Shown here: positions 16,101 through 48,937 of the stretch, piece by piece
How positions within the stretch are numbered: the stretch's first letter is position 1
How the letters are laid out: each line of letters begins with the position of its first letter
Source of the DNA: Lanius collurio
Taxonomy: Eukaryota; Chordata; Aves; Passeriformes; Laniidae
DNA length: 64,000 nt
Assembly (NCBI GenBank): GCA_020086605.1
Contig: JACBWW010000008.1
Location: 25,557,441-25,621,440, forward strand
Direction: 5' to 3'
Made by a program: the position numbers and the translations under genes
The notes under the pieces: model-generated
The model's input: the letters and a program-made list of their open reading frames with translations, nothing else
Told to the model about the DNA's origin: nothing
The model's database searches: none

Positions 16101-17297
16101 GAGTTTTTAGCAATACTTACAATTCTACCACTTGTAAGTCCAAGATTTACTTTATTGTAAATCAGCTACCATTTATTTACAAAGACCTGAGACTAATAAA
16201 CTGTCATTTTCAAAATACATTTGACCTGTAAAAATGACACCTAATTGTATATTCAAACACCATGGACACAAACAGCCAATAACAACCTCAGGATCTCAAA
16301 GTGATATGTCCTGACAAGAAAAGATGACACTTTTCAAGCATTCCTCACATTTCACTTAAACAAATTTACATTTGATTCTCAAGTATTTTGATTAAGATCT
16401 CATCTTCACCTTGGTCCCTTAAATGTCATAAATGCAGCACTTTACACATGATCCATTGCCTGTTTTCTGTTTGTTAGAAGAAGAAAATGGTATTTCTTCT
16501 TTTAATATATATTCCTGTAAGATATACAGCACAGACAGCAAGATTGTGTGGAGTACCTGATACAATATGCTTGCCTATCTGTATTTCCTGGGTCTGCAGG
16601 TGTCCGTGTTGTGTCAATCATCCCTCAAACACTATTTAATACTATAAATATACTAAGTCATTAACACACTAATCAATAATATTATTTAGAGATTAAATGT
16701 CTGCAGATTATAAAACCAAAAGCATTCAAACTTTTTAATGTTCAGAACACAATTAGTTAGAACGAGAAGGTAATAGCAAAGAGAGGAGGCATTTTTGTTC
16801 CTGATTATTTACATTGTCTCTCCTCCCCTATTCCGCCACTTACTCCTGGCCCACTTCAGAGGGCTGCCTGCGCTGGGACCTTCCTTCCCTGCCCTAGGTG
16901 AAGTTGTAAATATGGCAAATGATCAGTGCACACTTGCGACTAATTGTATTGTTTCCTCCTCCTCCTCTTGCTCTTTTCGGGTTGAGGCCTGTCACTGAGC
17001 AGCCGCTTCGCCTTTCTAATCCCCGAGCTGGAGTAAAGGCGCTGGCCGGCGGGCCTGCGCCCTCCGCCGGGCCTGGGCCTCCCGGCAGCCCGGCAGGAAC
17101 CAACCTCCTCCGCCAGACCTGACCGAGCAGGAGGGGGGGGGCTGCGAAATAAACACCTCCGGTTGCCACTTACTCCCCTCTACCCCGGATAACAGCTAAT
17201 CCCCTCTGCTCCCGGCAGTGCTGGGCCGCTGGGCTGAGGCCCGGCCCGCCGCTGGAGAGGGCAGGGAGGGGAAGGGGAGACAAGGAGGGGGGATTAC

Positions 17298-17450
17298 CTG
17301 AGCAAATCGGCGTCTGAATCCAACGAGAATCCGAGAGAGGGGGAAAGAAATCCGCCCCCCTCCCTCCTCAGAGGAGCCGCCGCCGCCGCTGGGCCGCCGC
17401 CGCCGCCGCGGAGCAGGAGGAGGAGGGGAGATAATATAACAACAATAATC
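17298..17450 (-). other. Candidate non-coding first exon of minus-strand gene
   Basis: On the minus strand the GC-rich leader ends in GATTTGCTCAG followed by the donor GTAATC. The transcription start (upper limit given) is a guess within the CpG island. It would be the 5' UTR exon of a gene running towards lower coordinates, possibly including the exons at 11.6 and 10.8 kb. No ATG in good context is seen. Confidence 0.45.
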
Positions 17451-17469
17451 CGGGCCGGGAGGGGGGCTG

Positions 17470-17724
17470 GCTCCTCTTCCGTCTCCTCCTCAGTGCAGCG
17501 AACATGTAGAGCCGGGGGGTGTGCGGCCGAGGCAAATCCTTTCCCCCCGAGCCTGCTTCACAACATCAACACGGGCCGGGCCGCGCCGAACCGGTTCCGA
17601 GCCGCGCTCCGAGCCAGGGAGAGCGGGAGGTGGCCGAGGGGCAGCGCTGCCAAGGGGCCGCCGCCGCCGCCGCTCCCTCCGAGAGTGCGAGCGCAGGAGG
17701 GCGGGGAGGGGCGGCCTGGGCACG
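17470..17724 (+). other. Candidate non-coding first exon of plus-strand gene
   Basis: GC-rich leader ending at the consensus donor CACG/GTGAGT. The start is approximate. Its open frames look like chance products of CCG-rich sequence. The gene's downstream exons are not identified, so most of 18-64 kb may be its first intron, or this may be a divergent non-coding RNA. Confidence 0.45.
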
Positions 17725-18109
17725 GTGAGTCGGTACCGAGCGGGGGGGCAGGGGGAGAGAAGGGCGAGGAGGAGGAGGGGGAAGGATCCTGTGTGTGTCT
17801 CTCTCGCTCCCTCTCCGAACAAAATGCCGACCGGAAGTGCAGCGGCAGGAATGACTCCCTCCACCGGCGCCAAACACCAGCAGCTTCCCCCTTCCCTCTG
17901 CTGCCTCCTCCTCGCCCGATCGCTCCCTCGCTCCGCCAGCACCGCTTCCGCCGCTGTAACTGGAGGGGCTCCCTTGCCTCGCTTCTCCCGGCAGTCTCCC
18001 CTGCGTAGGTCCTCTCCCTTCCACACCCCTCTGGCTGCGGCACAACTATCTCTTTCTTTTTTTTTTCTTGTTTTGCTTCCCCCTCCCCCCCCCCCTCCCT
18101 TTCTGGCGT

Positions 18110-18644
18110 ACGGAACGAGATCGAAGTTTACGCTTAAGCCTGCGTTGAGGATTTGTGAAGAAGGGACCATTGGAAAAAGAATACGCGTTTTGGTGTTTAT
18201 TTTTTGTCCTGCCTAAGCATGATGGGGAGGACGAGGAGAAGGACTACAAAATGCTGCCTCGCAGGAGGCAGACCTCACACTGAGGGTCCTTACAGTGAAC
18301 CCTGAAAGGCGGCAGCCCCTGCGGGTGGGACACTCACTGGAGCTACTGTCGCCGCTCTTGCCCTTCTCTGTGGACGTGAGAGGCCGCGCCTCAGGAACAG
18401 AAAGACCCGCTGCTCAAAGCATTGCCGGGGATTTCAAGATGGACATACCGAACGGGAGTGGCTTTCAAAAACAACCTTTTTGGACGAGCACTGGGGAAAA
18501 TACTGATGTTCAGGTGAAATGTCCTTCGCTGGAGGATGATACTCCACCTGATTTACTGGAAATATTTTAATTGTGTGTTGTGAAGGAGTGTTTGGAAAAG
18601 AGAATGTTCTAATCTGAAAGACTTTCTGGTGTTCCTCTGGACAG
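18110..18644 (+). other. Candidate alternative leader exon with short upstream ORF
   Basis: The sequence declines from CpG-rich to ordinary composition and ends at ACAG/GTAAAA (donor at 18645). Inside, an ATG at 18439 sits in a strong Kozak context (CAAGATGG) and opens a 43-codon frame starting MDIPNGSGFQKQPFW that closes at 18570. A weaker donor (CAG/GTGAAA) lies inside that frame, so the ATG could be either an upstream ORF or the true start of a spliced protein. I do not recognise the peptide. Confidence 0.3.
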
Positions 18645-33636: not shown

Positions 33637-33642
33637 GTAAAG
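33637..33642. repeat. Target-site duplication, left copy (GTAAAG)
   Basis: The six bases immediately before the LTR are repeated exactly at 36105-36110 after the other LTR. Six-base duplications are typical of alpha- and betaretroviral (ERVK-type) integrases. Confidence 0.9.
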
Positions 33643-33931
33643 TGTTGTAATGGGGGGGGATCCTTACAACATATATAAGACAGCGATGGACTTGGAAGGA
33701 AAGATGAAGCGATATTTCTTTAGATGTTCAGAGATGATTTATTCCTCCAGCTGCATGGTTGGAGTTCCCAGGCAGACTCCCTGGGACCCTCTCTCTTCCC
33801 GGGCCCCAGGCACCCAAACCACCCAGTCAGGAACAGATATGGGGCACACGTGACATGGGGACAGGGACAGGGACAGACCCGTACCCTGCAGGGTCCCTCC
33901 CCCTGGGATTTCGGGGAGAGGCACCTCCACA
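33643..33931 (-). repeat. 3' LTR of the provirus
   Basis: 289 bp, TGTGG...AACA on the minus strand, with an AATAAA polyadenylation signal (33738-33743). It matches the 5' LTR along its whole length with substitutions and a short indel near 33.78 kb. The bases just upstream (33932-33948) are only mildly purine-rich, so the polypurine tract is weak or degraded. Confidence 0.9.
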
Positions 33932-34348
33932 ATTCACCCGTTCTTATTAAATAAAATAACAGGGGAAATACAGTTGGATAAACAACAAAACAATTTCAAA
34001 GGAAAGGAAGCCACTATCTTGAGTCCCCAAATGTCCAAACAGATTTTCTTCAGAGCATCAGAAGGGAGACAGGACCTGAGCACGCCTCATATGGAAACTG
34101 AGGAAGGGATTTTCTTTTTTTGTTCCTGATGGAATCTTAGAAAATGACAGCTAATATCTTCCCTCCCTCCTTTTCATCCCCCCCCATTGGCATTGCAAAG
34201 GGATTCAAGGCAAATTGAAAACCATGGTTTTGTGAGGGGAACCAGAAAGGGAAATTTGGGCTGGGATATATGGGGGACAAAGGGGCATGGGATAAAAGGG
34301 GAAGGTGGGATAGGAGAAAGGATAGGGATTGTGGGGATATTGTCCAGC

Positions 34349-34606
34349 CTATCTACTGCCTTTGACAGGGACACCCCCAGGGCCTGTAACACATGCAGCC
34401 TATGGGCCCTTCCTTCCTTGCACAATTTTAAATTCTACTCTTTCTCCTTCTTCTAAGCTTGGAACATCACTTTTGGGGTTATTTTTAACAATAGCAGATT
34501 TATGGACAAAAATACTTTCTCCGGTATCTTTTTTTAACAAGAAGCCATGATTTTTCTTTCCATTATACCATTTTACAGTTCCAAAAACCCTAGCTGCGAT
34601 AACCTT
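34349..34606 (-). pseudogene. Captured Y-box cold-shock domain, broken by stops
   Basis: On the minus strand, one frame from 34606 reads KVIAARVFGTVKWYN, then an RNP1-position NHGF, an RNP2 motif IFVH, and SAIVKNNP. After an in-frame TAG it continues with VTGPGGVPVKGSR. This order and spacing is the cold-shock domain plus the downstream conserved block of vertebrate Y-box proteins (YBX1/2/3 family), which bind mRNA and Y-box DNA. The core is open for 68 codons. TAG stops lie at 34400-34402 and 34349-34351, and a TGA lies upstream at 34712-34714. Beyond the block the frame becomes proline/tyrosine-rich instead of the basic/aromatic islands typical of YBX tails. RNP1 is altered from the usual NGYGF. 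No intron interrupts it, although host Y-box genes are multi-exon. Confidence 0.85.
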
Positions 34607-35175
34607 TTCATTTTTCTGAGTTCCTTTGCTCTTGCTTTCACTTTCAGCTTTGCTTGCTCTCGCATCAGAGGTGCCACAGCTGGGACTGCCGGGGCCGCCA
34701 GCGCGTTCCTGTCATGGGGTTTTGACTCCTCGGGATGGCGTGTGGGGCCATGCGGGTCCAGTCGGGCCGTGCTGCTGCACACTGACCCTGCTGGCTGCTC
34801 TACCTTCAGCAACCTCTGCATCGCCTCTTGGTGCCGTGCTCGCTCACCCTCTGGAGTTCTGCATAACTGCTCCACGCTTTCTGGGCATTCGCGCTGCTGC
34901 ACAGCCGCGCCCTGTGAGGCGTTCATGTGTGCGTGGCTTCGTATCACCGGCACTGCTGCCGCTGCTGCTGCTGCTGCTGTTGGCTGTGTGGCCGTGGGCT
35001 AGCACGGTTCCCTTCTCACCCCCACTCCCCTCTGGCTCTGCTCGGCGTGGCTCACCACGGTCGCCATAGCGACTGCCACAATCGCCGCTGCCTTTCTTGG
35101 CACAGGGCTCGAACCGTCGCTCGCCACGTGGTGTGGGGCGGCCATCGCCAGGTCACGCCTCGGCCGCCACCGCCC
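34607..35175 (-). other. GC-rich linker between Gag-like ORF and cold-shock domain
   Basis: Strongly GC-rich with CAG/CTG runs (34957-34980). One frame (34573-34953, minus) stays open for 126 codons with Ala/Pro/Glu/Arg-rich composition and is in the Gag frame. The cold-shock frame upstream of 34606 is Ser/Lys/Ala-rich. The linker may be the remains of a Gag spacer, of a Y-box N-terminal tail (usually Ala/Pro/Gly-rich), or of both. The junction cannot be placed from sequence alone. Confidence 0.5.
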
Positions 35176-35700
35176 TCAGCGCTGCTTCAGGGCGAACACC
35201 GCCGGGCCCGTGCCGCCGCGTCGCTCCTGGCTCCACTCCCGCCGCCTCTGGTCTCCCACATGCGGGAGCTCCCTTTCTGCTGCCCGCAATGCCCTCGGCA
35301 CCCACGGCCGGGGCCGCGCAGTCTCCAGGGTGGCAGAGGAGCCCACTGCAACGCGCGCGCTGCTCGTCCATGTGTTCGCTGCTGGAACAGCAGTGGGACA
35401 CTGCTGATATTGCTCAACAGTCTCTGAAATTAGGTAGTATTCACGGAAATAGTCCTGCATCGGCACGTTTTTTGATTTGGAAATTAACTGTGTCCAAACA
35501 TTCTTCCAAAAGCCCTTGGTAAGAATCAAATCCCAAGAAACATAGAAGTTTTTAAACAACAATGCCAAAAAGTGTCTTAATTCTTTCTGAGCTTGAATTA
35601 AGCTAAAATCTACATGTTGCTGTTCAAGAACCTTTTTAAGTTTAAGGTAAATGTCGCTTTGTAGTTCGGACAGCCATGAGTCCTTCCATGAGTCCTCCAT
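35176..35700 (-). CDS. gag: Gag matrix-like ORF, truncated
   Basis: An ATG at 35700 opens 174 codons. Residues about 15-95 follow the helical pattern of betaretroviral matrix proteins: a leucine-rich first helix, a hydrophobic segment with LFKNFYV, a tryptophan-bearing helix TKGFWKNVW, and a VP-containing turn before another helix. There is no glycine at position 2, so no N-myristoylation signal. From about residue 100 the sequence becomes Ala/Pro/Arg-rich and runs to a stop. No capsid major-homology region or nucleocapsid zinc knuckle is seen. It starts 82 nt after the primer-binding site. Confidence 0.65.
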   Translation of the reverse strand: MEDSWKDSWLSELQSDIYLKLKKVLEQQHVDFSLIQAQKELRHFLALLFKNFYVSWDLILTKGFWKNVWTQLISKSKNVPMQDYFREYYLISETVEQYQQCPTAVPAANTWTSSARVAVGSSATLETARPRPWVPRALRAAERELPHVGDQRRREWSQERRGGTGPAVFALKQR

Positions 35701-35781
35701 CGTTCAGAGATGGGACAGCAAAACGAAAGCAAGAATAGATATTCAGAGTTACTCACGAATTACCTTCTCCAGGGATCGTTT

Positions 35782-35799
35782 GCTGGCATTTCTCCACCA
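35782..35799 (-). other. Primer-binding site candidate
   Basis: Two bases inside the 5' LTR, the minus strand reads TGGTGGAGAAATGCCAGC. It begins TGG, the complement of a tRNA CCA end, at the expected position. The first five bases TGGTG agree with a tRNA-Trp-type site, but the rest does not match any tRNA I can name with confidence. Confidence 0.55.
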
Positions 35800-35801
35800 T
35801 C

Positions 35802-36104
35802 TCTTGTAATGGGGGAAATCCTTACAACATACATAAGACAGCGATGGACTTGGAAGGAAAGATGAAGTGATATTTCTTGTAGATGTTCAGGGATGATTTA
35901 TTCCTCCAGCCGCATGGCTGGAGTTCCTGGGCAGACTGGGCAGACTCCTGTCATGGGATCCTCCTCTTCCCCATGCCCCAGGCACCCAAACCACCCCATC
36001 AGGGACAGGTATGGGGCACACGTGACAGGGGGACAGGGACAGGGACAGACCCGTACCCTGCAGGGTCCCTCCCCCCTGGGATTTCAGGGGGAGGCACCTC
36101 CACA
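35802..36104 (-). repeat. 5' LTR of the provirus
   Basis: 303 bp, TGTGGAGGTGCC at its start and CATTACAAGA at its inner end on the minus strand (AACA in the partner LTR, so one inner base has mutated). AATAAA signal at 35897-35902. It carries a short duplication (GGGCAGACT twice, near 35.93 kb) absent from the 3' LTR. The several differences between the two LTRs mean the insertion is not very recent. Confidence 0.9.
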
Positions 36105-36110
36105 GTAAAG
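36105..36110. repeat. Target-site duplication, right copy (GTAAAG)
   Basis: Identical to the six bases at 33637-33642. Confidence 0.9.
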
Positions 36111-37632: not shown

Positions 37633-37922
37633 TGTTGCAATGGGGAATTCCTGCAACATGTATCAGACAGCGACGCCTGTGGGATGGAAATACGGAACGA
37701 TATTTGGTAGATGTTCAGAGATATTTACTCTCCCAGCCACATGGCTGAGGGATGCCGAGGAACTGCCCACAGTCACAGGACCACGCAGTTCTTTTCAGGC
37801 TGGGGAAGACAAAACAACCAATGGGAAATAGGATCAGGGTACATGTGACCAGGGGACAGGGAGACCCCGTACATGTACCCCAGGGTGCCTCCCCCAGGAC
37901 TTCATGGCAAGGCATCCCAACA
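37633..37922 (-). mobile_element. Solo LTR, same family as the provirus
   Basis: 290 bp with the same ends (TGTTG...AACA on the plus strand) and shared blocks with the provirus LTRs: the CAGACAGCGA region, AGATGTTCAGAGAT, the GGGGACAGGGA run and CCTCCCCCAGG. Flanks GTGTTT (37627-37632) and GAGTTT (37923-37928) match at five of six bases, consistent with an aged 6-bp target duplication. No internal sequence remains, as after LTR-LTR recombination. Confidence 0.85.
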
Positions 37923-40684: not shown

Positions 40685-40979
40685 TGTTGAGGTACCTTGG
40701 CCCCGAGGTCCTGGGGGGAGGGACCCTGGAGTGTACAGGGCTTCCCCTGTCCCTGTCCCCATATCACAAGTGGCCTGTGCCTGTGTTCTGGCTGGTTGTT
40801 GGGGGTTCCCCAGGCTCGGGAAGAGGGGGGTAGTCTCGTGATTGTAAATCAGTCAGCCATGAGTCCTCAGCTGTGATGAGGCTGGAGGGAAATAAACATC
40901 CATGAGCATCCAGAAAATATCACTTCATAAATATTCATCGCTGTCTTCTACTTGTTGTAAGTATTCCCCGCTTACAACA
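40685..40979 (+). mobile_element. Solo LTR, same family, opposite orientation
   Basis: 295 bp, TGTTGAGG...TACAACA on the plus strand, AATAAA at 40891-40896. It is the reverse-complement match of the provirus LTR (CTGTCCCTGTCCCC block, CATCGCTGTCTTCT, terminal TTACAACA). Flanks CTGAAC (40679-40684) and CTGAGC (40980-40985) give a 6-bp target duplication with one mismatch. Confidence 0.85.
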
Positions 40980-47346: not shown

Positions 47347-48937
47347 TTAGTGGTTTAGTTCCAAATATCCATTACTTACTCATTTTACCTCTGTGAGATA
47401 AGAATTAGGAGAAAGCAAAGCAGGCACAAACTTAAAAGAATATAAAAAAGTTTATTAACAGACCTAAAAGAAAGAAACAAAAGTCAGAATCAGACTAAAC
47501 CTTTAGAAACACATCTCCTCCCCTGACCTTTCCCTTCTCACCTTGACAACATATAAAAATAACTCTTGAGATTTTTAGTCAGTTTACCACTTCTATAATA
47601 ACCACTTCTGTTTCAGTTTGCATAGGAAGAAGAGTCTCTGAGTCTCTCCTGCTTAGGCTATGGAGACATCTCCACAAGAACAACTCTCTCGTGGTTGTAG
47701 AATCACAGCAAGACAGCTGCCTGGGTTGGTTCTCTGCTTGCATGTGAAATGTCCCTTCCCTCGAATTACAGTTTTCCCACAAATGTCTTTCCAGGGTTCA
47801 AATTTGAGCTAATGGGGTGTCAGTTTAAGACTGAACCATTCAGAAGCAAAAGTTTTCTTCACTTATCTCTAGGAGCATCTTCATCTCTAGGAACCGAGGG
47901 TGTCTTCGCGTTCATCCCTCCCTGTTCCGTTCTACTGAGGTCTAGATCAGTCTGTATCAGAGGGTGGGACTGTGCCCCCCTCCTCTGGGCACATCGAATC
48001 CAGGTGTATTGCACACCCCCTTCTAGGTAAAGGCAAACTGAGTCCTGCACTCTGTGCCAAAGGAATGAAGAAAAATGCATTTGCTACTTCAACATTTTCC
48101 TTATCTCAACACAAGCACTCTTGCTCACAATTGCTCAAACCCCGCTTTCATGAAATTACAGTGGGTACTCAGGATGTATCATAGTTCATTCCCACAGGTT
48201 TTACAACAGAATTTCAGCTTTTAGCAGCTCCTCTTTCTCCTCCCTCAGGGTTTCAGCCCTTCCTTCTTCACTGATTTCGGTGTCTTCGGGGTGTTTCCTT
48301 CCTGCTCCTTCACCTTTCCCCTGGGAGAGGATTGGTATCTGCCGGCTGTTCTGAAGAAAATCTCACAGCACTAAAAGGGTTAATCTGACCCAGGCAGCTG
48401 GAATCGCTCGTCGCTGTCACAGGAGCTGTGCCGGGCAGTGGCCAGAGCTCAGGCCGCAGCGGTGGGGGTACGCTGCCAGACCGCCTGCCTGGGGCAGGGC
48501 TGTGGGGCGCGGACGGAACGGGGCCGCACGGCTCCGGGCTGGCTCCGGGCCGGCTCCGGGCCGGCTCCGGGCTGGCTCCGGGCTGGCTCCGGGCCGGCTC
48601 CGGGCTGGCTCCGGGCCGGCTCCGGGCTGGCTCCGGGCCGGCTCCGGGCTGGCTCCGGGCTGGCTCCGGGCCGACTCCGGGCTGGCTCCGAGCCGGGCCC
48701 CGCCGGGCAGTGCAGGCCCAGCCCCCGCCCCCAGTTACTTGTGCAAAGGATGGAAGTCAAAGGGCTTTCCCGAGCTCTTGTTCGTTCTTGAAATATGGAT
48801 CACTGAGGCGTGTCAAACTTCTTAAGTGGCTTAAAAAGATGCCAATCAAAACTAACCAGCTGATTGGCTCTGTTAGGACCAGAGGGAACTGCAAGCACCT
48901 CTTTGCAAAGAATCACTTCCCAGGCTAAACCATGACA
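47347..48937 (-). mobile_element. Long solo LTR (avian ERV) inserted in CR1
   Basis: On the minus strand it begins TGTCATGGTTTAGCC, a start typical of avian ERV LTRs, and ends CTAAACCACTAA, forming near-inverted termini. A polyadenylation signal AATAAA lies about 100 bp before its 3' end (47451-47456, reverse). Flanks GTTGG (47342-47346) and GCTGG (48938-48942) form a 5-bp duplication with one mismatch, and the CR1 reads through if the insert is removed. At 1.59 kb it is long for an LTR, partly because of an internal GC minisatellite. It contains no coding domain, so it is read as a solo LTR. Confidence 0.75.
48530..48696. repeat. 11-bp GC-rich minisatellite inside the LTR
   Basis: About 15 tandem copies of GGCTCCGGGCY, where the last base alternates between T and C. 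Because 11 is not a multiple of three, the repeats leave open frames in several registers. These are artefacts of composition, not genes. Confidence 0.92.

What the first reader, a model, noticed from the sequence alone, without database searches (positions are those of the whole stretch)
33643..36104. Endogenous retrovirus carrying a transduced Y-box cold-shock domain
Exact LTR pair and 6-bp target duplication bound an internal region with a Gag matrix-like start and an intronless Y-box protein core (FGTVKWYN, IFVH, SAIVKNNP, VTGPGGVPV). No pol or env is present. This is the layout of oncogene-transducing retroviruses, but the cargo is an mRNA-binding cold-shock protein. A Gag-linked RNA-binding domain could have served RNA packaging or translational control of the host. 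I do not know of a described bird ERV with this cargo.
Basis: partly seen in the sequence, partly recalled or inferred. Interest (0 to 1): 0.92.

Follow-up and report, generated by a model that had tools for sequence, protein, structure and literature searches.

The report
Virus-like repeat carrying cold-shock domain
This is one copy of a repeated retrovirus-like element in an animal genome that long ago took in the RNA-binding part of a host gene (a Y-box protein) and copied it, in spliced form, to many places, which makes it an unusual case of a virus keeping a host RNA-binding domain.

Summary
Window 33643-36104 (minus strand) is a 2.46-kb LTR element: 6-bp target duplication, a diverged (not exact) LTR pair (264 of 282 aligned bases, K2P 0.068), an ATG-started Gag-like ORF, a 0.7-kb CpG-rich segment, and a Y-box cold-shock domain (Pfam CSD 6e-17; best solved match YBX1). 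The decisive test: the domain is not a retropseudogene in one ERV. In the window's own genome 75 of 77 distinct loci examined carry it. When copies were picked by their 5' ends and not by the domain, 28 of 30 (type A) and 15 of 16 (type B) carried it. The host YBX1 gene has introns and reads as human over four exon pieces; the element lacks the three introns between them, has changed in about half of its residues, and its near-fixed differences gather at third codon positions. So the domain was captured from spliced mRNA, apparently once, and copied for long under coding constraint. No pol or env was found: mobilisation in trans is inferred. What the domain does (RNA binding or packaging most likely) is inferred too. 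No paper found describes it.

The parts
33637..33642 (.). target-site duplication, copy 1 (gtaaag)
33643..33931 (-). 3' LTR (TG...CA in element orientation)
33932..34345 (-). 3' region; in 11 of 55 copies the CSD frame runs into it and ends at the same distance; Pro/aromatic-rich tail. A purine-biased stretch lies before the 3' LTR (by eye)
34346..34689 (-). captured Y-box cold-shock segment (YBX homology about 34352-34615; Pfam CSD about 34403-34582); stop codons at 34400-34402 and just after GSR in this copy
34690..35390 (-). GC-rich, CpG-rich segment (68% GC, CpG o/e 0.82) between the Gag-like ORF and the CSD; type B copies align only from about its base 206 on or later
35389..35700 (-). 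Gag-like N-terminal ORF (ATG at 35700; frame open on to 35176); matrix identity not shown
35701..35801 (-). leader with a primer-binding-site-like TGG start at 35799 (2 bases after the LTR) and a donor-like GTGAGT (26 of 50 aligned leaders read GTGAGT)
   Evidence: the tRNA-Ala resemblance is recalled, not tested
35802..36104 (-). 5' LTR
36105..36110 (.). target-site duplication, copy 2 (gtaaag)

Best explanation
It is one member of a many-copy, non-autonomous endogenous retrovirus family that long ago transduced a spliced Y-box (YBX-type) mRNA. SHOWN: LTRs with 6-bp target duplications, a Gag-like 5' ORF in two variants, and a cold-shock domain that is a regular part of the family and was kept as a reading frame while the family replicated. 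INFERRED: without pol and env it was copied by the enzymes and particles of a helper ERV; the CSD, made either as a Gag-like-linker-CSD protein or from its own message, bound element RNA (or host mRNPs) and so helped its stability, translation or packaging, much as host YB-1 is reported to do for retroviral RNAs. The window copy is a decayed fossil of that family, of the order of 10-20 million years old if the substitution rate is about 2-3e-9 per site and year (assumed).
For: Copies: 40 scored of 1017 first-look candidates; besides the window itself (100%) the other 39 are 90-94% identical. 36 of 40 with both LTRs, same order; LTR-pair K2P median 0.082, range 0.038-0.131. Linkage tests not based on the CSD: 28 of 30 type A loci, 15 of 16 type B. 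Own target duplications: 25 of 26 scored copies match at 5 or 6 of 6 bases, against 6.9% of 650 mismatched flank pairs (10 of 36 copies were not scored because the start was cut or not aligned). Capture from mRNA: host YBX1 introns of about 3.35 kb, 2.1 kb and 214 bp are absent in the element. Constraint: near-fixed family-host differences at codon positions 1/2/3 are 13/9/26 of 48/48/44 near-fixed sites; stops in the CSD frame 53 against 325 and 448 in the other frames, 54 copies; gapless 35 of 68 identity to YBX1; of eight RNA-contact residues named in PMC9928419 (passages) six are kept, Y72 is changed and E121 falls on this copy's stop. Type A and B 5' ORFs: blastp 27 of 65 columns identical, E 2e-10; 24/14/33 differences by codon position in 59 codons. 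Host YB-1: PMC6040738 (passages) cites RNA stabilisation for HIV and MLV and RNA-dependent support for MMTV production.
Against: Function is not tested. The shared-versus-singleton test for CSD (28:32 against 51:172, p 0.0004 at 4+ copies) loses significance without CpG-type sites (6:10 against 26:107, p 0.10; 0.06 to 0.44 at other cut-offs). The same test on the Gag-like ORF points as strongly or more to another frame (p 0.003 against 0.029; 0.006 against 0.09). Given 35 of 68 identity, keeping 6 of 7 contacts by chance has P 0.06. MA-to-CSD frame relation is 14/13/12 of 39, so a fusion protein is not shown (1 of 39 copies is open from the MA ATG into the CSD). No match for the 5' ORF in Pfam, PDB sequence or fold searches. 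No helper element was identified. [quoted passage not shown] Copies were the best-scoring ones, not a random sample.
Confidence: 0.85

Rival explanations
1. A processed Y-box retropseudogene landed inside an ERV.
For: The domain is intronless and broken in this copy.
Against: The domain is present in 28 of 30 and 15 of 16 copies picked without it, in the expected place; no own target duplication or poly-A was seen around it by eye; divergence from host (36% of bases on average over 147) is far above LTR decay (K2P 0.068). In the one bird surveyed in PMC3136929 (chicken; passages) only 78 retrocopies were found and CR1 is thought to make very few.
Confidence: 0.02
2. The CSD is passive cargo: it was picked up by template switching, hitch-hiked with a successful LTR/packaging signal and did nothing.
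For: LTR-mediated capture happens in birds (DYNLRB1 in parrots, PMC8854603, passages); the CpG-filtered shared-variant test is not significant; third-position differences to the host gene can partly be host-lineage changes.
Against: Third-position excess of near-fixed differences and stop depletion in one frame point to a translated domain over many copying cycles; 28 copies still have 150 or more open codons (the same filter passed 54 copies).
Confidence: 0.15
3. The CSD segment is a decoy for the host: a dominant competitor of YB-1 that alters translation or silencing of element RNA in germ cells, and not a packaging aid.
For: Six of eight named RNA-contact residues are kept in this copy while others diverged, and the tail is Pro/aromatic-rich and poor in charge (K+R 6%, D+E 1% in 28 open tails), unlike the charged C-terminal domain of YB-1 (PMC6040738, passages).
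Against: No direct data; competes with the packaging/stability reading on the same facts.
Confidence: 0.2
4. The 5' ORF is not a Gag matrix at all but another captured host piece.
For: No match in Pfam or PDB sequences at E up to 10, Foldseek best E 1.1; type B has only an insignificant Pfam match (E 0.1).
Against: Position right after LTR, TGG-starting primer-like site and leader; helical prediction with four longer helices (low confidence, mean pLDDT 62); two diverged variants sit on the same element.
Confidence: 0.15

Closest known systems
Crocodilian ERVs with captured KIT-ligand (CrocERV29) and nectin3 (CrocERV31), PMC4299795 (abstract and passages)
   Same: ERV lineages of a relative of birds that captured a host mRNA, kept it through copying, and show purifying selection on the captured ORF.
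   Different: Cargo there is a ligand or an immunoglobulin-type cell-surface protein, with all viral domains kept or env replaced; here an RNA-binding domain sits in a 2.5-kb element without recognised pol or env, behind a Gag-like ORF.
Oncogene-transducing retroviruses (v-src, v-sis; review PMC13297096, passages)
   Same: Host coding sequence inside an LTR-bound genome.
   Different: Cargo is not a growth gene; the element became a many-copy germ-line family.
Y-box proteins YBX1/YBX2 (PDB 6lms, 7f3i)
   Same: Cold-shock domain with Y-box-type stretches; same RNA-contact residues K64, W65, F74, F85, H87, K118.
   Different: 35 of 68 identical to YBX1; Y72 changed; Pro/aromatic tail in place of the charged C-terminal domain; no introns.
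LTR-mediated retrocopies in birds (DYNLRB1 in parrots, PMC8854603, passages)
   Same: Host mRNA turned into intronless DNA by LTR-element machinery.
   Different: That is a single retrogene; this one is an amplified family with its cargo retained.
Songbird LTR families (PMC6523648, passages)
   Same: 6-bp target duplication is used there to class LTR families as ERV2/ERVK.
   Different: 'Cold shock' does not occur in that text; I could not compare sequences with that library.

Membership tests
Host-gene-transducing retrovirus / ERV | LTRs, target duplication and viral internal sequence surround the host segment | tested here: met
   (viral nature of the internal part rests on LTRs, leader and position; the 5' ORF itself matched nothing)
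Host-gene-transducing retrovirus / ERV | host segment derives from spliced mRNA | tested here: met
   three host YBX1 introns absent in the element:
Host-gene-transducing retrovirus / ERV | host segment moves with the element | tested here: met
   28 of 30 and 15 of 16 copies picked without it
ERV class II / ERVK | 6-bp target duplication and TG...CA ends | tested here: met
ERV class II / ERVK | reverse transcriptase groups with class II | not testable with these tools
   no pol in the element; no autonomous relative was found
Retroviral Gag | matrix domain at the N-terminus | tested here: inconclusive
   ORF in the right place, helical low-confidence model, no match
Retroviral Gag | capsid and CCHC nucleocapsid domains | tested here: inconclusive
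   none found in the seven window reading-frame pieces scanned; frames are broken and not every frame was scanned
Y-box protein | cold-shock domain of Y-box type | tested here: met
   6.3e-17, above cutoff; the eight best of 37 matches are Y-box proteins
Y-box protein | C-terminal domain of alternating basic and acidic clusters | tested here: not met
   tail K+R 6%, D+E 1%, P 24%, aromatic 23% in 28 open copies
Processed retropseudogene | own target duplication and poly-A tail at a single site | tested here: not met
   none seen by eye; the segment is at the same place in the copies

The most novel reading that the evidence does not exclude
A captured host cold-shock domain took over the RNA-binding job of the retroviral nucleocapsid: the family made a capsid-less mini-Gag (membrane-type N-terminal domain, Ala/Gly/Ser-rich linker, Y-box CSD, Pro/aromatic tail with a YPxnL match) that marked its own RNA for particles supplied by a helper ERV, which is why the CSD was kept in both 5' variants of the family.
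Probability: 0.27. Interest if true: 0.88.

Novelty: new variant of a known kind. Interest (0 to 1): 0.74.

Why it matters
The captures by ERVs and retroviruses that I saw described concern ligands, a cell-surface protein and growth genes. A many-copy family built around a captured RNA-binding domain would show that a defective retrovirus can gain from carrying a host mRNP protein, and would give a dated natural experiment on YB-1 and retroviral RNA, a link that the papers seen here report from cell culture. It is also a clean case where the cargo can be shown to travel with the element, because two strongly diverged 5' ends share it.

Tried and rejected
Rejected: retropseudogene in one ERV. 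Rejected as evidence: the YPx(1-4)L match in 27 of 28 open tails, because the copies share descent and shuffled tails carry one in 0.215 of cases. Rejected as evidence: recurrent in-frame stops upstream of the CSD as an ancestral end of the frame; at the four recurrent sites they are TGA where most of 54 copies read CGA or CAA, i.e. CpG decay. Rejected: 'recent burst' on small contigs; L042/L044/L048/L050 share flanks and are one insertion in a duplicated segment, counted once; L060 and L061 had no difference over the compared 313 columns of the MA stretch and were counted once. Other segmental duplicates were not looked for. One search's target-duplication score was anchored about 9 bases off and is superseded. 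No relative was found in viral contigs or genome contigs, or in the protein collection (2 candidates, none scored); these are made of viral and prokaryote contigs or, for the last, seem to hold few vertebrate proteins. GC-rich segment as YBX1 exon 1: no significant blastn match, left open. Which paralogue (YBX1, 2 or 3) was captured: undecided; of six positions that differ between YBX1 and YBX2 the element shares three with YBX1, two with YBX2 and one with neither; YBX3 was not compared. CSD structure prediction was never accepted by the busy machine. A genome-wide copy count by pattern and a host CSD-exon search did not complete. Indel rates looked lower in CSD and MA than in their neighbours, but the copies were picked by these pieces, so I do not use that. 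Papers: seven searches aimed at such an element and three at context; none of the listings shows an ERV with a Y-box or cold-shock cargo. The library lacks most subscription journals and all preprints.
Full report
What is there. On the minus strand of the window, 33643-36104 is bounded by a 6-bp target duplication (gtaaag at 33637-33642 and 36105-36110) and by two LTRs with TG...CA ends (33643-33931 and 35802-36104; the inner end of the 5' LTR reads GA, not CA, in this copy). The LTRs are not exact copies: 88% identical with gaps, 18 differences over 282 aligned bases and 9 gap events, K2P 0.068. Inside, in element order, lie a short leader with a TGG-starting primer-site-like stretch, an ATG-started ORF (35700, open to 35176), a 0.7-kb segment of 68% GC with CpG observed/expected 0.82 (the other pieces: leader 0.79, MA 0.45, LTRs, CSD and tail 0.11-0.27), the cold-shock segment, and about 0.4 kb before the 3' LTR. 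Two related solo-like LTRs lie nearby (37642-37922 minus, 40685-40979 plus).

The cold-shock segment. Pfam CSD matches at 6.3e-17, above its cutoff. The eight best of 37 PDB matches are Y-box proteins (YBX1 1.2e-19). Identity to human YBX1 is 35 of 68, gapless. Of eight residues named as RNA contacts in PMC9928419 (passages) six are kept, Y72 is changed, and E121 is where this copy has a stop codon. A second stop follows soon after.

It is a family. The window's own genome (1.097 Gb, 2132 contigs) was searched with the segment: 40 matches were scored out of 1017 first-look candidates; one is the window, the other 39 are 90-94% identical. All 40 were fetched. 36 of 40 have both LTRs in the fetched stretch, in the same order, with lengths of 2.38-2.58 kb in 34 and 2.89-2.90 kb in two; LTR-pair K2P median 0.082, range 0.038-0.131. 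26 of these 36 could be scored for target duplications (10 dropped: start cut or not aligned): 25 match at five or six of six bases, 15 at six, all 26 with different 6-mers; flanks of different copies paired as control give 6.9% and 0.2% of 650.

The linkage test without picking by the domain. Copies were picked by the leader plus Gag-like ORF (40 scored of 702 candidates); 30 of the 40 were fetched and 28 of 30 carry the domain. The two without it are L042, a truncated member of a duplicated segment, and L053. With duplicates counted once this is 25 of 26. A second 5' type exists: 11 of the 36 two-LTR copies have another 5' region of about 0.73 kb (two of the four others match it too) whose ORF is related to the first (27 of 65 columns identical, E 2e-10 for the pair). 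Copies picked by that region: 40 scored of 308; ranks 2-17 were probed with 241-base pieces at the expected place, and 15 of 16 hold the domain. With the two known duplicate groups counted once, 77 loci distinct by coordinates were looked at (61, plus 16) and 75 carry the domain. The true number is probably larger but was not counted.

Origin. A human YBX1 C-terminal query found the host gene on contig C64 and a weaker locus on C9. Four pieces of the host gene around the cold-shock domain (22, 12, 30 and 37 residues) read exactly as the human query, and are split by introns of about 3.35 kb, 2.1 kb and 214 bp, none of which is in the element. The first few residues of the domain were not located. 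Zebrafish and human YB-1 also agree over this stretch as aligned. So the host protein has hardly changed, and the element's amino-acid changes most likely arose in the element. Over 147 host bases the 63 aligned rows (60 distinct copies) differ from host by 36% on average; near-fixed differences (85% of rows agree) fall 13, 9 and 26 at codon positions 1, 2 and 3, of 48, 48 and 44 near-fixed sites. Part of the third-position excess may be host-lineage change. Simulated neutral decay to the same protein divergence gives on average 1.4 stops in 68 codons (none in 23% of runs) and leaves six or seven of seven contacts in 3.5% of runs; both together 0.9%. The simpler hypergeometric chance of six of seven contacts is 0.06.

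Was it coding while the family spread? In 54 copies the CSD frame has 53 stops over 270 bases against 325 and 448 in the other frames; in 44 copies the Gag-like frame has 42 against 269 and 280. Variants shared by four or more copies are more often synonymous than singletons in the CSD frame (28:39 against 47:173, p 0.001, other frames 0.15 and 0.34; after dropping duplicates 28:32 against 51:172, p 0.0004). With CpG-type sites left out this is 6:10 against 26:107, p 0.10 (0.06-0.44 at other cut-offs). For the Gag-like ORF the test is not safe: p 0.02 (0.03 without CpG sites), but a wrong frame gave p 0.003 and 0.006. The copies form a star-like tree with both 5' types mixed (mean pairwise CSD differences within A 0.080, within B 0.078, between 0.079; 26 and 11 copies), as expected if the 5' ends were swapped by template switching during one burst.

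One protein or two? One copy of 39 is open from the Gag-like ATG into the CSD; the next longest run is 250 codons. The distance between the two frames is 0, 2 and 1 mod 3 in 14, 13 and 12 of 39 copies. Since indels after insertion are frequent, this neither shows nor excludes a fusion protein. The recurrent stops upstream of the CSD are CpG decay. In 11 of 55 copies the CSD frame ends at the same distance, after a tail rich in proline and aromatic residues and poor in charge (28 tails), unlike the YB-1 C-terminal domain.

The Gag-like ORF. It has no match in Pfam, PDB sequences or PDB folds; the single-sequence model is helical with mean pLDDT 62. Calling it matrix-like rests on position and on the two diverged variants; a resemblance recalled from memory is a lead only.

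How it most likely works. Shown: capture of a spliced host domain, long co-replication, coding frame kept, independent insertions. Inferred: helper-driven mobilisation, and an RNA role for the domain. PMC6040738 (passages and reference list) cites YB-1 as stabilising HIV and MLV RNA and supporting MMTV production in an RNA-dependent way (and finds MLV-vector transduction itself not severely hampered by knock-down), which makes RNA stability or packaging the simplest gain. I give that mechanism about 0.45, decoy/competition 0.2, passive cargo 0.15, other 0.2; the structural claim of a transducing ERV family about 0.95.

Age. With 2-3e-9 substitutions per site and year (assumed; PMC13297096 quotes 2.2e-9 for mammals) K 0.068 to 0.082 gives roughly 11-20 million years. 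The capture is older: about half of the residues had changed by then.

What is new. Crocodilian ERVs with KIT-ligand and nectin3 (PMC4299795, abstract and passages) are the nearest described case that I found. Seven literature searches aimed at such an element showed no ERV with a cold-shock or Y-box cargo in their listings. The repeat family itself may well sit, unnoticed as to cargo, in a repeat library that I could not search.

Noticed in passing
37642-37922 (-) and 40685-40979 (+): Two further LTRs of the same or a related family (about 68-75% identical), seemingly solo, within 5 kb of the element.
   Followed up: partly
48529-48700: 11-base GC-rich minisatellite (roughly 15 units) in the window.
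   Followed up: no
17200-18200: GC-rich block with long open frames on both strands, looks like a CpG island / gene start; no Pfam match for a neighbouring ORF at 18226-18570.
   Followed up: no
L071-L074 (contigs C988, C845, C1457, C953): One insertion of this family lies in a segment duplicated on at least four small contigs at 94-98% identity, an ampliconic region.
   Followed up: partly
L009, L012, L013 and other type B copies: A second, strongly diverged 5' region with a related ORF sits on the same CSD and 3' part, pointing to recombination at about base 206 or later of the GC-rich segment.
   Followed up: partly
34690-35390: The GC-rich segment keeps CpG o/e 0.82 although the LTRs are at 0.17-0.27; it varies twice as much between copies (mean K2P 0.22) as its neighbours (0.085-0.10). 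Its origin is unknown.
   Followed up: partly
35782-35799: The primer-like site begins TGGTGGAGA in 32 of 50 aligned leaders; by recall this resembles tRNA-Ala, which would be unusual for an ERV with 6-bp duplications. Not tested.
   Followed up: no
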